In this document: positions 1,164 through 28,154 of the stretch, in pieces
Numbering within the stretch: the first letter of the stretch is position 1
How the letters are laid out: each line of letters starts with the position of its first letter
Assembly (NCBI GenBank): GCA_038093975.1
Contig: JBBPTG010000007.1
Location: forward strand, 248,001 to 312,000
Length of the DNA stretch: 64,000 nucleotides
Source of the DNA: Chalciporus piperatus
Taxonomy: Eukaryota; Basidiomycota; Agaricomycetes; Boletales; Boletaceae
Direction: 5' to 3'
Notes under the pieces: model-generated
Database searches by the model: none
What the model was told of the DNA's origin: nothing
What the model saw: the letters and a program-made list of their open reading frames with translations, nothing else
Position numbers and translations under genes: made by a program

Positions 1164-3923
1164 ATGCTTTACGACTCATCGACGGTCCAACATCTGAAAC
1201 CATGGCTCGTTAGAACTCTCGGTCCAATGTCTGTCCTATTCCCATCAAAAATCATACATACTCAATATCATTTCCAGATGCGACGCTGAACCTGCAGCAC
1301 TCGCCGAATATGTCATCGCTCTCCTCAAGCACAACCTACCAGAGCGTGAAATGCGAAAGGAACTCTCCTCACAGCTCGACGAGTTTCTCGAGAAAGGTAC
1401 CCTAATTCCCGTCATCTTCTCATCCACCTCCTCACCGTCATCTACACCCGCAGAGGGCGTCTCATTTATAGATACTTTATTCACCGTCCTAAGAACAAAG
1501 TCCTATCTTCCCTACACCACTGAGCCAACCCCCTCACAACCATCCTCGTCTAATCAACATCCTGGTGACGCCGGGATTCCAATACCTTTCGATAGTTTGT
1601 TATCTAATAACACACCTTCCCCCGAACGAGGCCAAAAACGTGCTCATGGCGACGACAACCGCGACACGCACCATCCTGCAAAGGGCCCTCGGTTAACAGC
1701 CGACGGCCAGTTTTCACGTTACTCAAATGGACGCGATGCTCGTTCGACTGGTCAATGGGCTCAGAGGTTCGACATGCAGGGACAAGTGAATGGGATCGCT
1801 CAGGGCGCCAATGGTCAGCGCATACAGACGTACCAGCCACCAGATCAGAGAAGAGGCATATGTCGGGACTACCACAGTGCGCATCCTCACCCCTTCATTT
1901 CATCCCACATATCTTACCTCACACGAATTAACAGATAATGGCTACTGCGCTAGAGGCGCACTCTGCAAATACAGTCACGGCGACGATGCATTTGTTCCTT
2001 CGCAGCTGTTTACACTCGGTTCCGCAGGTAGTCAATTACCCTTCTTGCCCATGTTTGCAAATGGTGGAATGCCCTTCGGGATGGTTGGATCTGGCGCAGC
2101 TTACGATCCTCACGAAGCACGTATGGATATGCGACCCGCAAGGATGATGGGCATGAACGGTCGAGCTCCTCATCCTCGCACACCTCTTCTACACGCGGAC
2201 GAAGGTTCACAAGCGAATCGAACTTCGGGCGAGCTCCCTGTTATTCAAGACTTGACGCCTCAGGTCCCCGAGGACTCTACCACGACGACTTCACAACCAC
2301 CGGCACAGCCCACACAGGATGATGCATGGTCGCAAAGCGCGCCATTACCACAACACCCACCGTCTCAGCCAATGGATGTTGATATGAGCGTTCCACCACA
2401 GCATATACGCGGTGGATCTGGAGGTGGCCGGGGAAGAGGTGGGGGAAGAGGGACGTTCGCTGGCGACGCACAAGCTTTCCGTCCAGAACGTAGGAACGAC
2501 AAGACCCTCGTCGTCGAGAAGATACCAGAAGACAAGCTCTCCCTCGATGCTGTCAACACATGGTTCAAACGTTTCGGCACCGTCACAAACGTCGCCATCG
2601 ATGCTCGCACTGCGAAAGCGTTGGTCAGCTTCTCCGACCACAACGAAGCGCATGCTGCCTGGAAGTCGGAGGATGCCGTTTTCGGTAATCGCTTTGTCAA
2701 GGTGTTTTGGCATAGGCCGATGGACGGACATGGTCAGAAGGGTACACGGATGTTGGCCGCTTCCGCCCCGCTAGTCGCAAAAATCACTGCACTGAGTGCA
2801 ACTCCCACCGCTCCTCCAACAGGTGCTACTCTATCCACGGCTGCAGCCCGAAAGCCATCCGTAGTACCTAAAGCTACCGCCGAGCTCGCGGCGAAGCAGA
2901 AGCTTTTGGAGGAACAAATAGCTGAACAAAAATCACTCATGGCATCGTTAGCTACGGCTACTGGAGAGGAAAAGAAAACGATCATGGCCCGTCTGAGAAA
3001 GCTTGGCGAAGAGATGAAGCCCTCATCCCCAGCCCCAATACCTGGGGAAGCTTCTTCGCAATCTACATCTACAGCTTCACGACCTGCTACCTCCACAGAT
3101 GACCATGACAAGGAGAGAGACAAACTGGACATGGAACTTGATCTTCATGGTACCACGGGTGGGGAGCCTACGGAAGATCTGCATGCCAAGCTTGCCAAGC
3201 TCAAGGCAGAGGTGCGTATATGTATACACTCCTCTCAAGTAAGCGCTAATGTCGCAATAAGGCTGCAAGCTTAGGCATTCCAGAAAATGGAGACCATTCC
3301 CATGGTGGAGGTCCGTACCGTCCATACAGAGGTCGCGGGCGCGGAGGACGCGGTGCGTTCTCTAGGGGTGCTGGGAGAGGTGGTCCTCCTCGCGGCAGCA
3401 TGAAGCTTGATAACAGGCCCAAAAAATTGCTTGTAAAGGGCGTGCGGGAGGAAGCTATTCCAGCCGTACGGGAGTGGTTCGAGGTAAATTAACTCTTCTC
3501 TCAGCTTTCTTGATGATGTAACTCATGTTTCTTAGTCTACGGGTCAGCTAGATGCTGTAGAGATCGTCGGAGAGAGCGAAGTGCTGGTTGGTTTCCGAAC
3601 AAGAGCAGGCGCAGAACAGGTTCGTGCATTCCTTGAGCTTCTTCCTTTACGAGTATTTATGAGCTGTCTAGGCTCTCGCAAAAGGTAGCGACTTGCCTTC
3701 TGTTGGTGCCGTCCAGATATCATGGCATACAGGCCAACCGCCGCCTTCAAGCTCGCAAACATTCACAGCCTCATCATCCCAATCCAATGTAAAAGAGAAC
3801 AGTCCGGCAAATGCACGAGCTGCATCGCCTCCCCGACAAGGCCATCAATCGCCTCGCCGGCAGGAAGAGGAGGTTGTCGCAAGTGGATGGGGTGATGGTG
3901 GTGATGAGGACGACACCATGTGA
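1164..3923 (+). CDS. RBM26/RBM27-type RNA-binding protein (PWI-like, CCCH, RRM)
   Basis: Six exons: 1164-1228, 1278-1876, 1935-3211, 3262-3483, 3536-3619, 3672-3923; 832 aa. The N-terminus (LKPWLVRTLGP then ICDAEPAALAEYV, joined across intron 1) matches the PWI-like fold of RBM26/27. A CCCH zinc finger is split by intron 2 (CRDYHNNGYCARGALCKYSHG region). An RGG-rich stretch precedes an RRM (TLVVEKIPEDKL, then ALVSFSDHNEA). A Lys/Glu-rich predicted coiled coil follows, then a second RGG patch and a second RRM-like segment (KKLLVKGV). Orthologues work with the nuclear exosome: human RBM26/27 in PAXT and fission yeast Rmn1 in MTREC, so nuclear RNA decay is the likely role. The start was chosen because exon 1 supplies the conserved LKPWL helix and splices in phase. 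Confidence 0.9.
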
Positions 3924-4309
3924 TTGTGATTGTACGCTCGCTCACGCGATGCAACCCACGCTTGCTTGTAATGCGTCACTGCTCTTGTGTTTTTTTCTTT
4001 TCTTTTTCTTCGTTTGTACATTCACATCTCGTCTCGTGATTTATGTACACGAGACTAATCCATGGGAACAAGCTGGCTGTTGGTCACCAGCCGTCCATTG
4101 CGGATTCAGATACTAGTGTGATTCATTGGGCTATTTACCGGAGACAGGTCGTGATCTACGTTTCATTTATGGTGGGTATGTAGCGTAGAGTTCGTGATAT
4201 AGCGGGGTGACATAGGTCCTTGAAACAAGCAAATGGGAAACAAGAGACGAGTCCGAGAGAGTGTGTACAATTGCAGGGGAAATCCGGGCGATGTCCTTGA
4301 TGGTGTCCG
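3924..4309. other. convergent intergenic region
   Basis: 3' ends of the RBM26-like gene (+) and the next gene (-) face each other. The only visible feature is a pyrimidine-rich tract (about 3989-4012) typical of 3' UTRs. I see no gene. Confidence 0.5.
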
Positions 4310-5455
4310 TCAATTCTTGCGGCCAGTTACTACGTCCATTGCATAGGGGTCCGCGTAGATACTACCCTCTCGTGTGTATCTGTTCCCTAGACCCCCTATC
4401 GAGTAACCAATGCATGGTCTCGTGTCCGAGAAGACATGGTCGTAATCTCCTGGGATTTGTTCCGGTGATTCGCACCGAGTCAATGGCTCCTCCCCATCAT
4501 AATAGAGGGATCCAGGGTTGGAACAAACTGGCAATGCCATTGGCGTTGGCTTGACAATGGGTAGACCGGTAGCATTCGAAAGGACATTTTCCGGTGGCAC
4601 TGGTGGCAGGACGGCAATAGCCTCGTCTCCCGTCGTCTGGTAGAACTGGGGTTGATTGGCTGCCTGTGGATACGCATTGAAGGGGCTGGGGAGGCGGACG
4701 TCCTTTAAAGTGGATAGGCGAGGAGGCTTGGATGGGTTCGCCATGGAAGAGCGATGAGTGGGGCGGGTGGTACGGGAATATCCACACTTCTTGTGGTCCT
4801 CGGGACGTGCAACGAAACGTGATTCATGACCCAAAATGGAGGGTCGTTGGCTCGAGAAAATCGGTGGATTCAGGTTTGGTGGTGAGCGGCGTTCAAGACC
4901 GGGTGGTGCGAAGAGAAGAGGGGAAGGCCGGAGTGTGCTCTGACGCATCTTCTTGGGGGGCTGAGGAATCACAGTCTCCACGGATAGATCGTACTGGCTG
5001 GAATTACCGCCGACGATTTGGGCCCCGAAGTCATCGGAAACGCGCTCGCGTTTACGAGTCCTGTTGATTACGCGTTCGAGAGTTTCAAAGGTGCCTTCGA
5101 ACACTTGGGTTATCTTGCGCTTCTGAGTGTTCTGGTGATAGTTTGTTTTCATCATCGCTGGTGAGTGTGAGGCAGGGTTGAGCGGCCTGGGAGAAGGAGT
5201 TGGAGGACGGGAATCAGGAACGATGCTGCCAATTTGTAGGTTCCGATTGGAGAGCATCAGTCCGCGAACGCGCTTTGGGAAACCACTGTTAACAGAGTGA
5301 CTGTGATGGTGAGGCTTGGACGCAGTCGGACCATCGTTGGCATCGACCAACATGGCGTCTGACTCTGCCTAGATGAATAAACTGAACTCAGCTCTGGCTC
5401 TGGCTATCATTTAGTAGTACGCCGTGGGTTGACTCACGAAGGTGGCGGGTTCCAT
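4310..5455 (-). CDS. uncharacterised Pro/Ser-rich basic protein
   Basis: Two exons, complement(4310-5368, 5438-5455), 358 aa. The first exon codes only six residues (MEPATF). Its donor GTGAGTC and the CTAG acceptor join in phase to an upstream extension of the long open frame. If that intron is ignored, the ATG at 5353 would be the start. Most of the protein is low complexity: His-rich near the N-terminus, several SPP/TPSP motifs, and a predicted short helix (FEGTFETLERVINRTRKRER, about residues 95-114) that is basic and could be a nuclear localisation signal. I recognise no family. The proline-directed Ser/Thr sites would suit a CDK/MAPK-regulated nuclear protein, but that is only a guess. 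Confidence 0.65.
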
Positions 5456-6287
5456 TAGAACTTCTTTCGATCTATGTGATGCGGGAATTGCACCGGGAGT
5501 GATGGTCCCGCCAGCCTGCCATCTGACCTATTTATCACTCACCTCAGTCTTCCCTTTCTTGTCTTGGTAACGCTCGCAACAGGAGTTAGTGGGCGTCCAG
5601 CAAAAGACAAAAGGTATCTTACGCGGATACAATTGTCAAGCGAGCGTTAAGACAACAACGACTCGGAGGTATTCGGACTGCATAGTGGCGAATGTGTACA
5701 TGTGGACCCACATAACGACTCAAATACAACAATCGTCTTCCAGCGTCTTCCCTGTCAAATCTATAGTAAGTTATGTCATATTTCGTCCCGGATTTGTGAC
5801 TGGCCTCGCAACGTTATCTCTCGCCAGAGTCGCCACGTACCGCACAATAAACATGGTAGTCTTCATCTAATTCTTGGACCTACCAAGGCATCCTGAGTCG
5901 GAGTCAAACCACTGGCAGGAGGGGTCAGTACAATTTAGGGAGGCCTCCGCCCGGGGGGATTACTTACATTGTTCCGAAAATGTCGCTGGGTGAGAACGGA
6001 ATAGTGCCAGCGGACAGCCGTGCGAATCGGCTGAGAGTAGAGTACTTGCTGCGTTCAAGGGCTCGAAAAACAGGAATGCGTGTACCAAATGTATACCAAT
6101 TTATGCTAGTATGGAGACATGAGTACTTGAGTCGGAGTCGAGACTTCAAGTTGTTGAGACTTACATTCATATCCCGGGCCGGCGGCAGAGGTTTCCGAGT
6201 CCTGTGTCAAGCTGGTACCACAGAGCCTGCCAGTTGACGGAGGCTAGCTGTGATCCGTATACCAACAGGCGTTGATCCTTTACGCCG
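5456..6287. other. intergenic region between divergent genes
   Basis: About 830 bases between the start of the 4310-5455 gene (-) and the first LYC1-like gene (+). Small open frames exist (e.g. 5980-6237) but have no homology I can recognise and no consistent splice structure. It probably holds two promoters; I see no RNA gene or repeat. Confidence 0.45.
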
Positions 6288-7633
6288 ATGGCTCAGCTTC
6301 ATAATATCGCTTCGCTAACTCTCTTTCGTGCGACTCCAGCTCAAGTTCTTGAGTCCCGAAGGCGGACCTGGCCCGAGTGGGGAGGTGTGCTCACCGAGGC
6401 ACAGTATATGGACCGGGATAATCAGATGGATTCTATGGAGCATGCTGCCAACTCCCATATGATCACTTGGTGAGATCCAACGAAAGCTGCATTGGTTCTG
6501 ACACGATATGATACGTGCAGGGTCCTAGCACCAAGAGATGACCCAGAGACTCTTGATTTTGCATGTGCTTGTGAAACGTTTGTGCCGTAACTGTCTTGCC
6601 AACGGGACCAGATCAATTGATTTCCCTATCAGATATAAACGAAAGGGTTTCATTCGATACAACGGGTCTAGAGAAGTGCAGGAAGCTACTTTCTACGGAG
6701 TAGCGTGCGTATATACCCCACCACACAAACGCGGGAAAGGCTATGCATCCCATATGATGCGACTTGTGCACTGGGTCACTTCGGGACGAACATCTGAATT
6801 CAACTTACCACAGTTCCCGGCGGAATGGGGCTCCCCACCTCCCTTGGTCGAAGAAGCCGGGAATGGGATGTTCTCTATTCTTTACAGCGCCGTAGGGGAC
6901 AATTTTTACAGGGAGGCTGGTCCTGGCACTGAGAAAGCGGGTGGCTGGGAGACGAGGGGCCCGGTATCGACTACATGGGAAATCCCGAAGCGAGACGGGG
7001 ATTGTCACGACGACGCGGACAAGGAGTGGAAGTGGATCAGATATGAAGATCTCGACATTCTTTGGGCCAAAGACGTTCAGCTCATCCGACATACATTGGA
7101 AAGTTTACCGGAATCAAGCCTAGATTACCACGTCGACCGACCGACGGCATTCGTATCCTATCTTCCGGACAAAGGTGTTGGGTCATTCCATATCTTTCGG
7201 TCCATGTTTGGCCTTGACAACGTCGTGGCGATGGACATCTGGGGCCTAGAGAAGGAGGTCGGCACGAATGCTGTCTATCCGACTTACGCTGCGTGGACAG
7301 TCGACACGAAACCACTTCCTCCAGTTCTTGTAGTCACCAGGATGAGTGCGACCGAGGAAGATTTTCCGAAGCTTATCAGGAAAATCCAGGAGGTCGCTGC
7401 AAGAAATGGGATCAGGAAAATGGAAGCATGGAATATACCTAGACGCCTGCTCAAGGGAGTAGAACAGACAGGCGGAAAGACGTTCGAACGTCAGAGGCGC
7501 CTGCCTGCCATAAAATGGTATGGAAAAGGGGAAACTGCAGACATCGAATGGGTTTTCAACGAGAAGTATGCTGACCCCTCTTTTCGTGCACAATCGGTTG
7601 ATCATCCGAGTCCTCAGGTTCTGTTGGTGCTAA
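6288..7633 (+). CDS. LYC1-like GNAT N-acetyltransferase, copy A
   Basis: Exons 6288-6469, 6521-6577, 6633-7565, 7618-7633; 395 aa. The family includes Yarrowia LYC1, a lysine N6-acetyltransferase that opens lysine catabolism. The GNAT acetyl-CoA loop is clear in exon 3 (HKRGKGYASHMMRL, about residues 105-120; R-x-x-G-x-A pattern). A long C-terminal domain follows, with IEWVFNEK near the end. The last exon is only 16 nt and codes FCWC-stop; the donor GTATGC and acceptor CTCAG make this join in phase. All three intron positions and the total length are identical to copy B downstream, which supports both models. Substrate specificity (free lysine or another amine) is not visible here. Confidence 0.85.
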
Positions 7634-8070
7634 TTTCAATCTGATATCAACGCCGGTCGTCTGGTTTTCACGATCGTTTGGAATACAACATATTTCCATA
7701 TTCTCGAGTCTAGCAATCACATCATCGTGTGCATCATGAGGTTCATTTGCAAACGATGAGCATTGTCAGATCATCGTGGGCTCCCTGACCTTCCGAGTTC
7801 CTTCTCCCTTTGGATGGATCTTGGATCCAACATGTGGTGTTATAATAAGGGATGCGTCTGTTCTCGTGTATTGTTACCACCGTTCCACGACTACGTCGGC
7901 CGGACCGTGAGTTGATTCAGCCTGACCTCGCCTGACACCACGCGTATGCTGAGAACTTTGAACTGTCAGTGTCAACCGGTGACATTTCAATCGAATGCAC
8001 ATGTGATGTCAAAGTCCATCGTCCAGCTCTTACCCATTGTTATCATCGTCCCTCCCAATTTCATCTGGAG
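7634..8070. promoter_or_regulatory. spacer and putative promoter of LYC1-like copy B
   Basis: 437 bases between the two tandem copies. An AT-rich TATA-like stretch (ttataataagg) lies near 7840-7850, about 220 bases before the copy B start. No other gene is visible. The promoter role is inferred from position only. Confidence 0.3.
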
Positions 8071-9427
8071 ATGGTTCAGTCAGAATTTGCCTCACTGTCA
8101 TTATTTCCAGCCACGCCAGCTCAATTAATTGAATCGCGAAAGCGATCATGGCGGGAGTGGGGAGGTATGCTCACCGAGGAGCAGTATGTCGACCGTGACG
8201 CCCAAATGGATACTATGGAACATGCAATTGACTCCAGGCTGATTACATGGTGAGGGCTATTAGACCTTGAAGCTTCAAGTTGAAGTGAGCGAACTCAAGT
8301 AGACATGGATCTCAGGGTACTTGCACCTAGGAACGACCCCGAGACCCTTGATTTCATGTGCTCTTGTGAAACGTCAGTGCATCATCGTACCTGGCTTCAA
8401 AGCATGTCAATTTGACAAAGAACACAGTTTCAAGCGAAAGGGGTTTGTCCGATACGCGGGGTCGAACGAGGTGAAGGAAGTTACGTGCTACGCCGTGGCG
8501 AGCGTATTCACTCCACCGCATAAACGAGGGAAAGGTTATGCATCCCATATGATGCGACTTCTACACTGGGTTACCTCCGGACGATCGTCCGAGTTTAACC
8601 TACCACCCTTCCCTGAACAATGGGGTTCCCCGCCTCCCGAGGTCAAGGAGGCTGGAAATGGGGTATTTTCTGCCCTGTATAGCGACGTCGGAGACAGCTT
8701 TTACAAGCAGGTCGGCCCTGGAACCGAGAAAGAGGACGGTTGGGAGGTTAGGGGGGCGTTCTCGACAATCTGGGAAATCCCTGCGCAAACACAGGTTCAG
8801 CAACACGGCACGCACGCCGGCAATGAATGGACCTGGCTTAAAGACGAGGATCTCGACGCTCTCTGGGCGAAAGACGTGCAGAATATCCGGCGTACGATGG
8901 AAGGTTTGCCAGAGTCTAGCCCAGACTATCACACGGTGCACCCTACAGCGTTTGTGTCGTACCTTCCAGACAAAGGTGTAGCGGCATTCCACGTCCCCAG
9001 GTCTATGTTTGGTTCAGATAGCATTGTCTCGATGGATATTTGGGGTGTCGAGAAGAAGAATGGGTGCATCGATCAACCAACTTATGCCTCGTGGTCGGTG
9101 GATGTGCGCCCATTGCCACCGACGCTCATTGTCACTCGACTCTGCGCGACAGAGTCTGAATTCCCGGAACTTCTTGGAAAAATACAAGAGGTCGCTAGGA
9201 AGAGCGGCATCGGCAAAATGGAAATATGGAACGTACCCAAGCATTTGTTGAAAGTGGCCGAGGGAACAGGGGGTCGCACATTCGAAAGAACGGAACACCT
9301 GCCCGCGTTGAAGTGGTACGGAAACGGTAAGACCACACACATAGAGTGGGTCTTCAACGAGAAGTAAGTTCTGTTCACGGAAGCGAGGCATTGACACTAA
9401 CTTGTCGCAAGATTTGCTTGGTGTTGA
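8071..9427 (+). CDS. LYC1-like GNAT N-acetyltransferase, copy B
   Basis: Exons 8071-8249, 8316-8372, 8428-9363, 9412-9427; 395 aa. Tandem paralogue of copy A with the same intron phases and the same 57-nt second and 16-nt last exons; this copy ends FAWC. The GNAT loop (HKRGKGYASHMMRL) is identical to copy A, while surrounding sequence has diverged at many positions, so the duplication is not recent. The start at 8071 (MVQSEFASLSLF) aligns with the copy A start; an in-frame extension to 7969 has no support. Role: amino-group acetylation using acetyl-CoA, by family. Confidence 0.85.
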
Positions 9428-23939: not shown

Positions 23940-24181
23940 AGCGAGAGGACAGGCAAGTGTGAAGTTAAGAAGTGCAGCGTCGGGTCAACGAAGGTCAATA
24001 CGGGTATTACCCTACATAATGAACATCAAACCAAAGCCCAGGTGATACAATTGATTACGGGGAAACATTTGCGAAAGGATATTGAATGCAGACGAGTAGC
24101 TCCCTATGAGTGCTACTAGGTACAATAACTCGTCTACTGTCAAAGAATACAGTTCGGCCATAGTTGCCGGAAGTCCAGAGC

Positions 24182-24831
24182 TTAAGCTGCCGGACCCTTG
24201 CTAGTTCCTTCCCGAGACACCCAGTCCAGCCAAGATCCCTCGTAGTTGGAGACACTTTGCAAGAGTTGATCAGCACTCAGACTTTTGCAGCAAGGAGAGA
24301 TTACTACTTCTCAAGACCGTTTCTCTTGGCGATATCACATGCAGAGGCGCTTCTCTTGCCACTCCTGCAGTAGAAGACAATCTCTTGTGTCTTTCCTGGC
24401 TTGTCAAAACCATGCTGGCTACGGAACGTTTGAGGATTTAGGGTTAAGGAATTGGCAAGAACCGAGAGAGGGAGATTAACGGATGAGGGTATAGAGCCCT
24501 GCATCACCTCGTCGGGTTCTCGGACATCGATGAGGTAGGCGTCCTGGATGGCAGGGTTCGACTTGTGGGTAAAAGCGAAGAGGAATTGGAAACATACATT
24601 GCTCGGACTGATTGTCCTCGGCTTGACCTGTTCATAAGTGAGGATAGGGCCTTTCCAGTTCTCCTGTAGCTTGTCATTGAGTTTGCGTGCGGCCTTCAGA
24701 GCCTCCTGGGTGTCCGCCGCTTTGGAAGACTCGTATCGAGCGAAAAGCTGGAACGATGGTGCTGTTACCCTTCGAGGGATCAGAGCAGGACGGGCGATTG
24801 AGCGCGACGCGTTGAAGGCAGCTCGTAACAT
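24182..24831 (-). CDS. single-domain rhodanese, mitochondrial
   Basis: Sulfurtransferase of the yeast Rdl1/Rdl2 type. Exons (minus): 24831-24598, 24543-24308, 24254-24182; 180 aa. Starts MLRAAFNASRSIARPAL, a classical mitochondrial presequence. Rhodanese marks: AYLIDVREPDEVMQGSIP, then the active-site loop FYCRSGKRS with catalytic Cys, and SNYEGSWLDWVSRE at the end. Without the last intron the frame would stop right after NGLEK; the donor GTAGTA and acceptor GCAAAG restore NVSNYEGSW. Lies 240 bases from the frataxin gene, on the same strand. Confidence 0.9.
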
Positions 24832-25939
24832 GCCAGATGAGAGGACTCGAGGACGTAAGTACACAACTTACAATGTCTTACACAAGTCTTACATACAAAT
24901 CTCAACTTTGGCGAGAAACGCGTCAGGATGATGTCAGATTTGTCACGTGATCATGGCTATCACGCGGTGCCAGGGGTACTTGCTTATCGGAAATTTGCCA
25001 TTGGTTGCGCAGAATTGCCGCAGTCCTCCTCCCCTTATGCCTCTCTTCTCTTACCTCAACTCCCTCATCTCAACCATTCAAATATTTTGTTCTCGCTTCA
25101 ACCTCTGCACCACTCTAGGTCTTGCGATGAGTCTGGGTGTCCATAGGTGATACGTCGCAAGACAAGTGGGAGCGTAGTTCTCAGAACACTTGTCTCGCGA
25201 TGTACCTCCCTTGCCCTTGCGTCTGCACCCCGCCCCCAGCGGTAAGATCGTCGTCTCAGGATCACACCAAATCATCCTCGTATCGCATCACATCATCGGC
25301 ACACATCACTCGATGGTGTCTCTGCGCAACTCTACTGTTCCAAGTACTTCGTCATCATCCCTCTTCCCGCGTATTTGCCTCATCACCACCCCTCCATTTC
25401 TCTGCGTCTGAACCTCGTCGTCTCACCGTCACCTGACTTTTCGCTGGATGTGTGGGATTTGTCCTCAAGTTTCATCCGTCGGAATGGCCTCCCGTATGAT
25501 CAAAGCACAGCTGCCCTCATTTCCGCCGATGAACTGGTTCAAACCAGCTTGTCCTGTTCCCCGAGTCAGCGCTCGTTAGCGAAGCGATGAAACGTCGTGA
25601 TCCGACGCGATATCGTCTCATGTTGTACCGCCAACTTGGGTGAGCATGTCACTCCCTTACTCTGGAGCAATTACCTGTGCGACATCTATCTCCCTTGCTC
25701 TGGAGCAATTATCTGTGCGGCATCTGTGACAACCTGACGAGCTGCTACCTGGGGATGTTTATTTGAACACTGTTATCATTCGAATTCCATAATTTCCGGT
25801 TGTTTGTGTCAACCTGAAACTCAGGCACCAGCTGTCAGCGTCAGTTCTCGGCAACCACCGTATCTTAAAAGGTAAGTGTTCAGCCACTCACACTAGTCAT
25901 TCGCCACCCCTTAGCTCACTACACGCTACATTCTTCACC
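24832..25939. other. intergenic region upstream of the copper transporter
   Basis: About 1.1 kb between the rhodanese start (-) and the Ctr start (+). Several open frames on + (e.g. 25137-25436) have no recognised motif. It contains a 38-bp tandem repeat (listed separately) and a TTAAAA at 25865-25870, 70 bases before the Ctr ATG. Confidence 0.5.
25652..25727. repeat. two-copy 38-bp tandem repeat with inverted TTGCTC motifs
   Basis: Copy 1 is 25652-25689, copy 2 is 25690-25727, differing at few bases. Each has an inverted pair spaced by TG: TTACTCTGGAGCAA at 25657-25670 and TTGCTCTGGAGCAA at 25695-25708. TTGCTC/GAGCAA is close to the copper-response element TTTGCTC bound by yeast Mac1, which is also paired in the yeast CTR1 promoter. 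It sits about 210-290 bases before the Ctr ATG. The regulatory role is inferred. Confidence 0.6.
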
Positions 25940-26558
25940 ATGGATATGAACGCACCTTCCAACTCCTCTATGAGCCAGTCGAGTTCCATGATGATGATGA
26001 CGTTGCATTTTGGTGCAACCGATTACATTCTTTTCCAGGCCTGGCGCCCCTCATCCACTGCAGCCATAGCGGGTGCTTGCATCGGGCTGGTTGTGTTCTG
26101 CATCTTAGAACGTTTGCTTGCAGCCTGTCGTCGCAGCCAGGAATTAAAATGGAAGGCTAGGTTTGCCGAGTCCTCGTTGTTTACACACACAAATTATTGA
26201 CAGTTCGGTAGCACGCTATTGGAACTTCGTCGCTCATGTGGTCTACTGTCTTGCTCTGGTGAAGAAAATTCAAAGGAAGAAGTCTTCAGGGTCGGCGCTT
26301 CTTCCGCACGCCCACACGCCAGGCTCCTACCCCCTTTCACGCCGTCTCGCGATATACCCCGCGGCGTGCTTCAAGCCATCCAATCGACCTTTTCGTATGC
26401 CCTGATGTTGATCGTCATGTAAGTCGACTGGACCTATGATTTCTGCGTCCCGACTTGCTCATTTTTATTGCAGGTCTTTCAATGGTGCATACATCATCTC
26501 AATAATCTTGGGACTTGCGGTCGGGGAGGTGTTGTTTGGACGTATTGGGCGTTATTAA
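25940..26558 (+). CDS. Ctr-family copper transporter
   Basis: Homotrimeric membrane channel importing Cu(I). Exons 25940-26160, 26212-26418, 26474-26558; 170 aa. A Met-rich N-terminus (MDMNAP...MSQSSSMMMM) is a typical extracellular copper-binding tail. TM1 spans about residues 39-60. A basic/Ser loop leads to TM2 (about 124-146) with the M-x-x-x-M selectivity motif at Met139 and Met143. TM3 (about 147-166) has GLAVG at 156-160, the G-x-x-x-G packing motif. The size fits small Ctr proteins of the Ctr2/Ctr3 type. Location (plasma membrane or vacuole) is not decided by the sequence. The next gene codes for a BIM1-like copper protein. Confidence 0.92.
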
Positions 26559-27360
26559 GTCGGTGCGGTGGCTTCTGTATACCCTTGGTTGTGAATACCC
26601 ACATTCTCTTGAAACCCTTCGGACCGAGTATTCTAAGTACATACCTTATGTCATTGTATTTATTGCTGAGATGAATCTAGTTGCTACGCTCATTGTAACA
26701 CATCCATCGCACTTCACCTTAAGATGAGTCCTAGCCTAATAGATACTCCTCGCATCGCTTGAAGGTATGGCTCACCAACGTCCTCGTCGTTTCAAACCAG
26801 CATTACCTTACTAACTCGTGCGAGTCATGTTAACCGGCTGGCATTAGATCGCCTCCAGCCACGAGCGCTCACTGGCTGGCTCTTCACGCCTTATCACCTC
26901 TTCAAACATATGACCGATTTCTGGAGCGAATCTCTACACGGTCCGTGAGTTCCAAGTGGATCGCTGCTAAATTCATACTACAGAAGTTACTAGTTTTTCC
27001 GATCCCCCTTGTGCCTGTTTGCGGAAAAGGTGCACCGTGCCATTCCAAAAACCACATGCGTGCTTGGGGGGGGGCCGGGTGGACAATATCAAATGACCCT
27101 TTTTCTGTGCGATCTCTGCATGTTGGTGAGCTGATCTCCAGAGTTGGGATAAAAACAACAGTCATCTAATCAGTGCAAAAACGGCCTCGAGTTTTCTGCC
27201 GATCCCCTCAGTAAGCCAAACAAGACCATCTTCAGGTGAAAAAAGTTTTTTCTGAAGTTACTAGCAGAGGGGCCGGTATGCCAATAGAAACGGTTTAAAA
27301 GTCGGAGTGAGGAGGATCCCCGGAACATTTTACAGTTGAGATAACAGTCTGTACCGCAAA
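26559..27360. other. intergenic region between Ctr and BIM1-like genes
   Basis: 800 bases without a supported gene. It holds the Ctr 3' flank and the promoter of the BIM1-like gene, a G-run at about 27067-27074, and a near-palindrome at 27230-27257 (listed separately). Confidence 0.5.
27230..27300 (+). promoter_or_regulatory. putative promoter of BIM1-like gene: palindrome, CCAAT, TATA-like
   Basis: CTTCAG-GTG-AAAAAA-G-TTTTTT-CTGAAG at 27230-27257 is an inverted repeat with a 3-base insert on one arm. A CCAAT follows at 27281-27285 and TTTAAAA at 27294-27300, 61 bases before the ATG. The spacing suits a core promoter; the palindrome's function is unknown. Confidence 0.4.
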
Positions 27361-28154
27361 ATGCGCTTCACTTCGTTCGCTCTCTCTGCTGCGTTTGCCA
27401 CCGTTGCAGACGCACACTTCCAGCTTCAATATCCTCTGCCAAGAGGCCCGTTCGTTCAGAACTCGGAGCCAGGGTTCTGCGGTCGGTAGTATTCAAGTTT
27501 AGAGTTATCAGTGACTGAACGGCCTTGTGATGCAGACGGTTACACCGACGCTGTTGCTAACCGCACACAATTTCCTCTCACCAACGGGGTGATCAACCTT
27601 AACAGCGAGCACACTCAGTGGACAGGTAATTCCTTCCGATTATTGAAATATAATCAGCGAAATTACCAGGTCTTTTTCTTACAACACAGTCGGAGTGATT
27701 ATCTCCACAAAGCAGGATCCGACGTCATTCGCTGATTTCAACTCCTCTTCGGGATATCAGCTCGTCGCCCCATACATCCAGACAACTGGTGAAGGAAAAT
27801 TCTGCTTCCCCATCGACATTGCTGCGTCTAATGTCTCTGGCATCCATGACGGAGCAAATGTGACCATTCAGGTGGTCTTCGATGGCGGTGATGGTTTCCT
27901 CTATCAGGTTGGTCTAAATGCTCTGATTCATAGGATATCAAGGCTAAAGGATCGTGAAACAGTGTGCAGACTTGACTCTTTCGAGCAATGCGACTGTTCC
28001 GGGCGACGCGACCTCTACCTGTTCCAACATCACGGCTACCTCAGGCCCGACCGCGACCTCGACCTCGAAGCCTACGAACGCTGCTATCAAAGACACAGCG
28101 GCAATGTCTGGCGTCGCTGCAGTAGTTCTGGCGGGCCTTGCAGCGCTCCTTTGA
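27361..28154 (+). CDS. secreted BIM1-like copper protein (LPMO-like, GPI-anchored)
   Basis: Exons 27361-27481, 27536-27625, 27690-27907, 27963-28154; 206 aa. A signal peptide (residues 1-18, ending ADA) places His19 at the mature N-terminus (HFQLQYP), as in the copper brace of LPMO-fold X325/BIM1 proteins. FCDGY at about 39-43 and CF/CADL Cys residues fit the family disulfides. A Ser/Thr-rich linker and hydrophobic C-terminal tail look like a GPI signal. Known relatives include Cryptococcus Bim1, which helps Ctr1 import copper, and symbiosis-associated X325 proteins; they bind copper but do not cleave polysaccharides. Intron 1 uses donor G/GTCGGT to keep CDGY in frame. It is the next gene after the Ctr transporter, same strand. 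Confidence 0.9.

What the first reader, a model, noticed from the sequence alone, without database searches (positions are those of the whole stretch)
25652..28154. Copper-uptake pair: Ctr transporter next to a BIM1-like secreted copper protein
A Ctr importer (25940-26558) and a GPI-anchored protein with a mature N-terminal His of the BIM1/X325 type (27361-28154) are adjacent and co-oriented. In Cryptococcus, Bim1 hands copper to Ctr1 under copper starvation. Physical linkage of the two suggests a co-regulated uptake module in this fungus, which I have not seen described for an Agaricomycete. Both domain assignments are direct from sequence; the joint function is inference.
Basis: partly seen in the sequence, partly recalled or inferred. 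Interest (0 to 1): 0.8.

Follow-up and report, generated by a model that had tools for sequence, protein, structure and literature searches.

The report
Conserved fungal copper-uptake gene pair
In this bolete-like mushroom genome a copper importer gene sits right beside a gene for a cell-surface copper-catching protein, and indirect evidence suggests the same pairing has been kept across many mushroom lineages, which hints that the two proteins work together.

Summary
The window holds a complete Ctr copper importer (25940-26558, 170 aa) and, 802 bp downstream on the same strand, a complete BIM1/X325-type protein (27361-28154, 206 aa) whose mature chain starts with His.

The linkage is not a one-off. 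In 22 of the 25 Agaricomycete species that had named hits for both genes, a Ctr and a BIM1-like hit lie on a contig of identical length (1.09 expected). Seven annotated proteins with both domains, read here as merged neighbouring genes, all have the order Ctr then BIM1-like. Passages of three papers together indicate that Aspergillus fumigatus has a BIM1-like gene, ctrA2 and a metalloreductase side by side and co-induced by neutrophils.

The same genome has a second Ctr 0.36 kb from a metalloreductase gene: a Ctr-BIM1 pair and a Ctr-Fre pair.

Joint control by copper is not shown: the two upstream regions share no copper element above chance. The families are known; I saw no report of the Agaricomycete-wide linkage in ten searches, but the two founding papers were not available. 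A supportive, useful, not revolutionary result.

The parts
25652..25727 (.). Two-copy ~38 bp tandem repeat upstream of Ctr (read by eye) holding three TTGCTC/GAGCAA half-sites (25665-, 25695+, 25703-), similar to the core of the Mac1 copper element
   Evidence: Sequence; motif scan (3 found; 0.27-0.58 expected by mononucleotide shuffling). Post hoc, function unproven.
25940..26558 (+). Ctr copper importer, 170 aa, exons 25940-26160, 26212-26418, 26474-26558; Met-rich N-terminus, MLIVM (MxxxM) and GLAVG (GxxxG)
   Evidence: PF04145 123.7 bits; M139, M143, G156, G160 invariant in 18 rows
26559..27360 (.). 802 bp between Ctr stop and BIM1-like start; no copper element shared with the Ctr upstream region above chance
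27361..28154 (+). BIM1/X325-like secreted copper protein, 206 aa, exons 27361-27481, 27536-27625, 27690-27907, 27963-28154; leader ending VADA|HFQ, His1/His48/Asp120 of the mature chain, four Cys, hydrophobic C-terminal tail
   Evidence: PF20238 112.5 bits; 6ibh, E 3e-37, chain residue 1 aligned to His19
24304..24867 (-). Neighbouring rhodanese-domain gene, divergent from Ctr (longest open stretch; not part of the module)
   Evidence: PF00581 46.2 bits

Best explanation
A conserved high-affinity copper-uptake gene pair. The BIM1-like protein is secreted, loses its leader to expose His1, is tethered at the cell surface and binds Cu(II) through a histidine brace with an extra Asp. It supplies copper, after reduction to Cu(I), to a Ctr trimer, which moves it through the Met-lined pore. 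Shown here: gene models, families, ligand positions, order and orientation, and conserved linkage (by proxies). Inferred: surface tethering, copper binding, hand-off to this particular Ctr, and joint induction under copper starvation.
For: Pfam matches. LaX325 match E 3e-37 with His1, second His and GGDG Asp positions aligned and invariant in 42 aligned rows (window plus 41 relatives that I picked from those found). AlphaFold2 model of the relative P0001 has LaX325 as its top four PDB matches, target TM 0.87-0.91. Linkage: 22 of 25 species share a contig length; the four shortest of these contigs are 51-95 kb; P0020 and P0140 are both on a 'lgn' contig of 4,078 bases; seven proteins with both domains, Ctr first in all seven. 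Ctr tree of 50 rows: window inside a 15-row Boletales group at 100/99. Literature, passages only: Cryptococcus Cbi1/Bim1 interacts with Ctr1 and is induced in low copper (PMC9258870); A. fumigatus Afu6g02800-02810-02820 are adjacent and co-induced (PMC2481287); AFUA_6G02800 is the named match of P. destructans VC83_07867 (PMC5810475), a Cbi1/BIM1 homologue (PMC12113139); the A. fumigatus homologues listed for a P. destructans Bim1-like protein (VC83_03095) and for its Ctr1a bear consecutive accessions, XP_747797 and XP_747796 (PMC13208438).
Against: No expression or binding data for this fungus. No copper element shared upstream of both genes above chance. Imleria badia and Tylopilus felleus have their hits on different contigs, and Paxillus involutus on two tiny ones. 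Linkage elsewhere is inferred from equal contig lengths and gene models, not from DNA. In A. fumigatus copper lowers ctrA2 while the neighbouring metalloreductase Afu6g02820 rises more in wild type than in an aceA mutant (PMC8425704, passages), so that cluster is not simply co-regulated by copper; its co-induction was seen with neutrophils. One table pairs VC83_07867 with another A. fumigatus protein, XP_077660942 (PMC13208438). Cryptococcus Bim1 and Ctr1 genes are, as I recall, not neighbours, so linkage is not needed for the partnership.
Confidence: 0.75

Rival explanations
1. The genes are linked by history, and the BIM1-like protein mainly serves the cell wall (chitin or chitosan organisation, mycorrhizal or hyphal surface), with copper binding a side role.
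For: cbi1 deletion in Cryptococcus affects cell-wall integrity (PMC9258870, passages); the introduction of a paper on Isaria says X325 takes part in wall remodelling in Laccaria-Populus symbiosis (PMC9695133, passages).
Against: Linkage to a copper importer in several orders and invariant copper-ligand positions point to copper.
Confidence: 0.15
2. The Ctr-BIM1 two-domain proteins in databases are real bifunctional proteins, and the window's pair is a split version.
For: Seven proteins carry both Pfam domains.
Against: Six of the seven break off before or inside Ctr's third membrane segment (only P0216 is complete), and all seven keep an AHF at the start of the BIM1-like part; a C-terminal BIM1 domain would lack a free N-terminal His. 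They read as merged gene models. In the window a stop codon and 802 bp separate the two.
Confidence: 0.05
3. Chance neighbours in this genome with no functional meaning.
For: No shared motif above chance and no expression evidence.
Against: About 5e-5 by chance in this genome, and 22 of 25 species against 1.09 expected.
Confidence: 0.03

Closest known systems
Cryptococcus neoformans Bim1/Cbi1 with Ctr1
   Same: Same two families; GPI-anchored His-brace copper protein acting with a Ctr importer (PMC9258870, passages)
   Different: There the partnership was shown by experiment; the genes are not neighbours as I recall (not tested). Here the genes are adjacent but function is inferred.
Laetisaria arvalis LaX325 (PDB 6ibh, 6ibi, 6ibj)
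   Same: E 3e-37 over the domain; His1, second His, GGDG Asp and four Cys align
   Different: Genomic neighbourhood of LaX325 not examined
Aspergillus fumigatus Afu6g02800 - ctrA2 - Afu6g02820 cluster
   Same: A Bim1-like GPI protein gene (identity chained) beside a Ctr gene, both raised in hyphae with normal versus CGD neutrophils
   Different: Also includes a metalloreductase; in the window's genome one of several such genes sits beside a different Ctr
Fusarium oxysporum ctr3/fre9 and fre12/ctr1b pairs (PMC11563359, passages)
   Same: Copper importer genes paired with copper-uptake partners, under Mac1
   Different: Partner is a reductase and the genes are divergent; resembles the C40 Ctr-Fre pair (which is head-to-tail), not the window pair

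Membership tests
BIM1/X325-like proteins (PF20238) | Profile match above curated cut-off | tested here: met
   112.5 bits vs 27
BIM1/X325-like proteins (PF20238) | Leader peptide followed by His at mature position 1 | tested here: met
   LaX325 chain residue 1 aligns to His19; A18-H19-F20 invariant in 42 rows. No cleavage predictor was run, and the 18-residue leader does not reach my 17-residue hydropathy threshold of 1.3.
BIM1/X325-like proteins (PF20238) | Second His and Asp of the copper site | tested here: met
   H66 and D138 invariant in 42 rows, aligned to LaX325 H49 and D122. That an Asp is the fourth ligand: PMC10952591 passage; which residue it is, is my inference.
BIM1/X325-like proteins (PF20238) | LPMO-like fold as in LaX325 | tested here: met
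   On the relative P0001 (73% identical), not the window protein itself
BIM1/X325-like proteins (PF20238) | C-terminal GPI anchor | tested here: inconclusive
   Ser/Thr-rich linker and hydrophobic tail, residues 183-206; no GPI predictor available
BIM1/X325-like proteins (PF20238) | Copper binding without polysaccharide cleavage; induction in low copper | not testable with these tools
   needs protein and expression work
Ctr copper transporters (PF04145) | Profile match, full length | tested here: met
   123.7 bits, profile 1-151 of 151
Ctr copper transporters (PF04145) | Membrane segments, MxxxM and GxxxG, Met-rich N-terminus | tested here: met
   hydrophobic stretches 37-64 and 126-169, the latter read as two segments; MLIVM, GLAVG. 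Motif names are recalled.
Ctr copper transporters (PF04145) | Copper import | not testable with these tools
   yeast complementation needed
Copper-uptake gene cluster (Ctr with Bim1-like gene) | Adjacent genes with linkage kept in relatives | tested here: met
   22 of 25 species on equal-length contigs, 7 merged models; indirect
Copper-uptake gene cluster (Ctr with Bim1-like gene) | Common copper-responsive control | tested here: inconclusive
   TTGCTC half-sites upstream of Ctr only; GCTG-type patterns at about chance upstream of both; two copper-fist loci exist in the genome

The most novel reading that the evidence does not exclude
Fungi of both large phyla inherited a copper-uptake cluster of a Bim1-like copper catcher, a Ctr importer and a metalloreductase. 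In this bolete lineage it is laid out as two pairs, each with its own Ctr paralogue: Ctr-BIM1 (window) and Ctr-Fre (contig C40). Each Ctr would be dedicated to one supply route, protein hand-off or surface reduction.
Probability: 0.3. Interest if true: 0.65.

Novelty: new member of a known kind. Interest (0 to 1): 0.45.

Why it matters
The Bim1-Ctr1 partnership was worked out in one human-pathogenic yeast. Linkage kept across mushroom orders, and matched by a cluster in Aspergillus, would mean the partnership is a general fungal copper route and would name which Ctr paralogue is the likely partner in each species. Copper supply feeds laccases and other copper enzymes of wood-decay and mycorrhizal fungi (recalled), and a genetically tractable mushroom could now be used to test the idea.

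Tried and rejected
Shared promoter element: scanned eight distinct copper-element-like patterns and shared 9-10-mers. TTGCTC half-sites: 3 upstream of Ctr, 0 upstream of the BIM1-like gene. The GCTG-type pattern (recalled from fission yeast Cuf1): 1 found, 1.00 expected upstream of Ctr; 2 found, 0.77 expected upstream of the BIM1-like gene. Shared 10-mers 2 (1.78 expected), 9-mers 10 (5.86 expected). Nothing convincing.

Direct inspection of relatives' DNA was not possible: the collections described are prokaryotic, viral, plasmid or capped metagenome, so I used equal contig lengths and merged gene models.

A second Ctr copy on contig C234 looked at first like a second linked pair; it is a 99% identical block of window 24003-26872 that ends at the contig end, before any BIM1-like gene, with a repeated element on its other side. 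Haplotype, duplication or assembly effect: not resolved.

True Ctr-BIM1 fusion proteins were considered and judged to be merged gene models. Two higher-scoring splice models of the BIM1-like gene were rejected because they lose a stretch conserved in relatives.

The two founding papers (Labourel 2020; Garcia-Santamarina 2020) are not held, so I cannot say whether they mention linkage. In their listings, and in passages of 14 papers, I saw no statement of Ctr-Bim1 gene linkage in Agaricomycetes. [quoted passage not shown] Only passages were read, no whole paper.

Full report
What is there. The window comes from a 35.5 Mb genome in 484 contigs; the best named protein matches are to Boletales such as Gyrodon, Imleria and Boletus. 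The Ctr gene spans 25940-26558 on the plus strand in three exons and gives 170 residues; the BIM1-like gene spans 27361-28154 on the same strand in four exons and gives 206 residues. Pfam assigns PF04145 (123.7 bits, full profile) and PF20238 (112.5 bits). The intergenic distance is 802 bp. The upstream neighbour is a divergent rhodanese-domain gene. Ten of the 88 open frames of 130 aa or more in the window were scanned with Pfam and none was a copper gene. Genome-wide searches with the Ctr, PF20238, copper-fist and ferric-reductase profiles gave no other hit inside the window; one of the two copper-fist loci is on the same contig about 150 kb away.

The BIM1-like protein. The leader ends VADA and the mature chain starts HFQLQYP. 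Comparison with PDB chains gives one match with E up to 1, LaX325 (6ibh, E 3e-37), whose residue 1 aligns to the window's His19. The mature His1, His48 and Asp120 line up with LaX325 His1, His49 and Asp122, and all four Cys are kept. In 42 aligned rows (the window and 41 relatives I picked) His, His, Asp and the four Cys are invariant. An AlphaFold2 model of the relative P0001 (73% identical; mean pLDDT 81.7) has LaX325 as its top four matches, target TM 0.87-0.91; the next, an LPMO, has E 1.8e-4 and target TM 0.36. A review passage says X325 proteins have an aspartate as fourth copper ligand (PMC10952591). The leader was judged by alignment, not by a predictor, and is too short or mild to pass my hydropathy threshold; the C-terminal tail does pass.

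The Ctr. It has a Met-rich N-terminus, MLIVM and GLAVG motifs, and residues M139, M143, G156, G160 are invariant in 18 rows. A tree of 50 rows that I chose puts it in a 15-row Boletales group at 100/99 and broadly follows fungal orders, though 17 of 47 inner branches are unresolved. The genome's other Ctr genes sit on very long branches: C104 at the drawn root, C40 in an unresolved fork inside the wider Agaricomycete set but outside Boletales, so their places are unsure. The window's Ctr has a fairly long end branch (0.87).

Linkage in relatives. The protein search tables give the length of the contig that encodes each hit. These span Boletales, Gloeophyllales, Polyporales, Russulales and Atheliales (orders recalled). 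Athelia psychrophila counts as a match although one of its two Ctr hits is elsewhere, and Paxillus rubicundulus although one of its two BIM1-like hits is elsewhere. Misses: Imleria badia, Tylopilus felleus (sister rows in the Ctr tree at 84/90, not strong, so possibly one relocation) and Paxillus involutus (contigs of 2.5 and 9.8 kb, uninformative). Species found in only one table were not counted. On megabase contigs this shows linkage, not adjacency. Closer evidence: four matches on 51-95 kb contigs; P0020 and P0140 both on a metagenomic contig of 4,078 bases; and seven proteins (Panus, Bondarzewia, Agrocybe, Amanita, Sphagnurus, Termitomyces, Hericium; three orders, recalled) of the 76 that carry both domains, all Ctr first. 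Six of the seven break off before or inside Ctr's third membrane segment; all seven keep the AHF of the BIM1-like part, though in the complete one (Amanita) most of the leader is missing. I read them as neighbouring genes merged by gene prediction. In Sphagnurus and Termitomyces the preceding locus number is another BIM1-like protein. Most BIM1-like proteins have SEH at the second His, fewer GH: 132 and 23 of 168 ids by a simple pattern that also catches one Ctr, 13 neither.

Beyond Agaricomycetes. Afu6g02800 (GPI protein), Afu6g02810 (copper transporter) and Afu6g02820 (metalloreductase) are adjacent and rose together (log2 11, 8, 3) in hyphae with normal versus CGD neutrophils (PMC2481287, passages). 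A second paper names AFUA_6G02800 as the match of P. destructans VC83_07867 (PMC5810475), and a third calls VC83_07867 a Cbi1/BIM1 homologue regulated by copper withholding (PMC12113139). A fourth lists XP_747797 for another P. destructans Bim1-like protein and the consecutive XP_747796 for its Ctr1a, but pairs VC83_07867 with XP_077660942 (PMC13208438). Together these indicate Ctr-Bim1-like adjacency with joint induction in an ascomycete; that chain is mine. Against simple copper co-regulation there: copper lowers ctrA2, while Afu6g02820 rises more in wild type than in an aceA mutant (PMC8425704).

A second pair in the same genome. The best of 11 ferric-reductase profile matches in this genome is C40:154994-155344 minus, just downstream of the second Ctr on the same strand. 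Open frames there match PF01794 (80.5 bits) and PF08022 (35 bits), and PF08030 below its cut-off (20 vs 22.2). The likely start codon lies 357 bp from the Ctr stop (start inferred). So the three functions clustered in A. fumigatus appear here as two pairs.

Regulation. The genome has two copper-fist loci. Upstream of Ctr a short tandem repeat holds three TTGCTC half-sites, like the core of the Mac1 element TTTGCTCA quoted in PMC11563359; none occurs upstream of the BIM1-like gene. GCTG-type patterns occur upstream of both at about chance numbers, and shared 9-10-mers are 10 and 2 against 5.86 and 1.78 expected. Joint control is open.

Verdict. The gene pair is real, complete and conserved. The most likely function is copper capture at the surface and import, by analogy with Cryptococcus Cbi1-Ctr1 (PMC9258870, passages). 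Family membership is well supported; copper binding, hand-off and joint induction are inferred.

Noticed in passing
G000 C40:154994-156782 (L015 about 2700-5500): Second Ctr gene, with a leader-like N-terminus, directly followed on the same strand by a metalloreductase gene: a Ctr-Fre pair in the same genome.
   Followed up: partly
G000 C234:1-2899 versus window 24003-26872: A 99% identical copy of the rhodanese-Ctr block on a small contig whose end corresponds to a point 488 bp before the BIM1-like start codon; haplotype, duplication or assembly effect.
   Followed up: partly
L014 about 2900-8730: Repeated element with 99-100% identical pieces on other contigs and inverted ends of about 43 bp, with a helicase-like open frame (by eye), abutting the copied Ctr block. 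Family not identified.
   Followed up: partly
window 6529-7644 and 8303-9367 (+): Two successive open frames encoding similar proteins of 371 and 354 aa by eye, a likely tandem duplicate.
   Followed up: no
P0100/P0101, P0210, P0212, P0219/P0228: Tandem, neighbouring or merged BIM1-like genes in several Agaricomycetes, judged from locus numbers and double-length proteins.
   Followed up: partly
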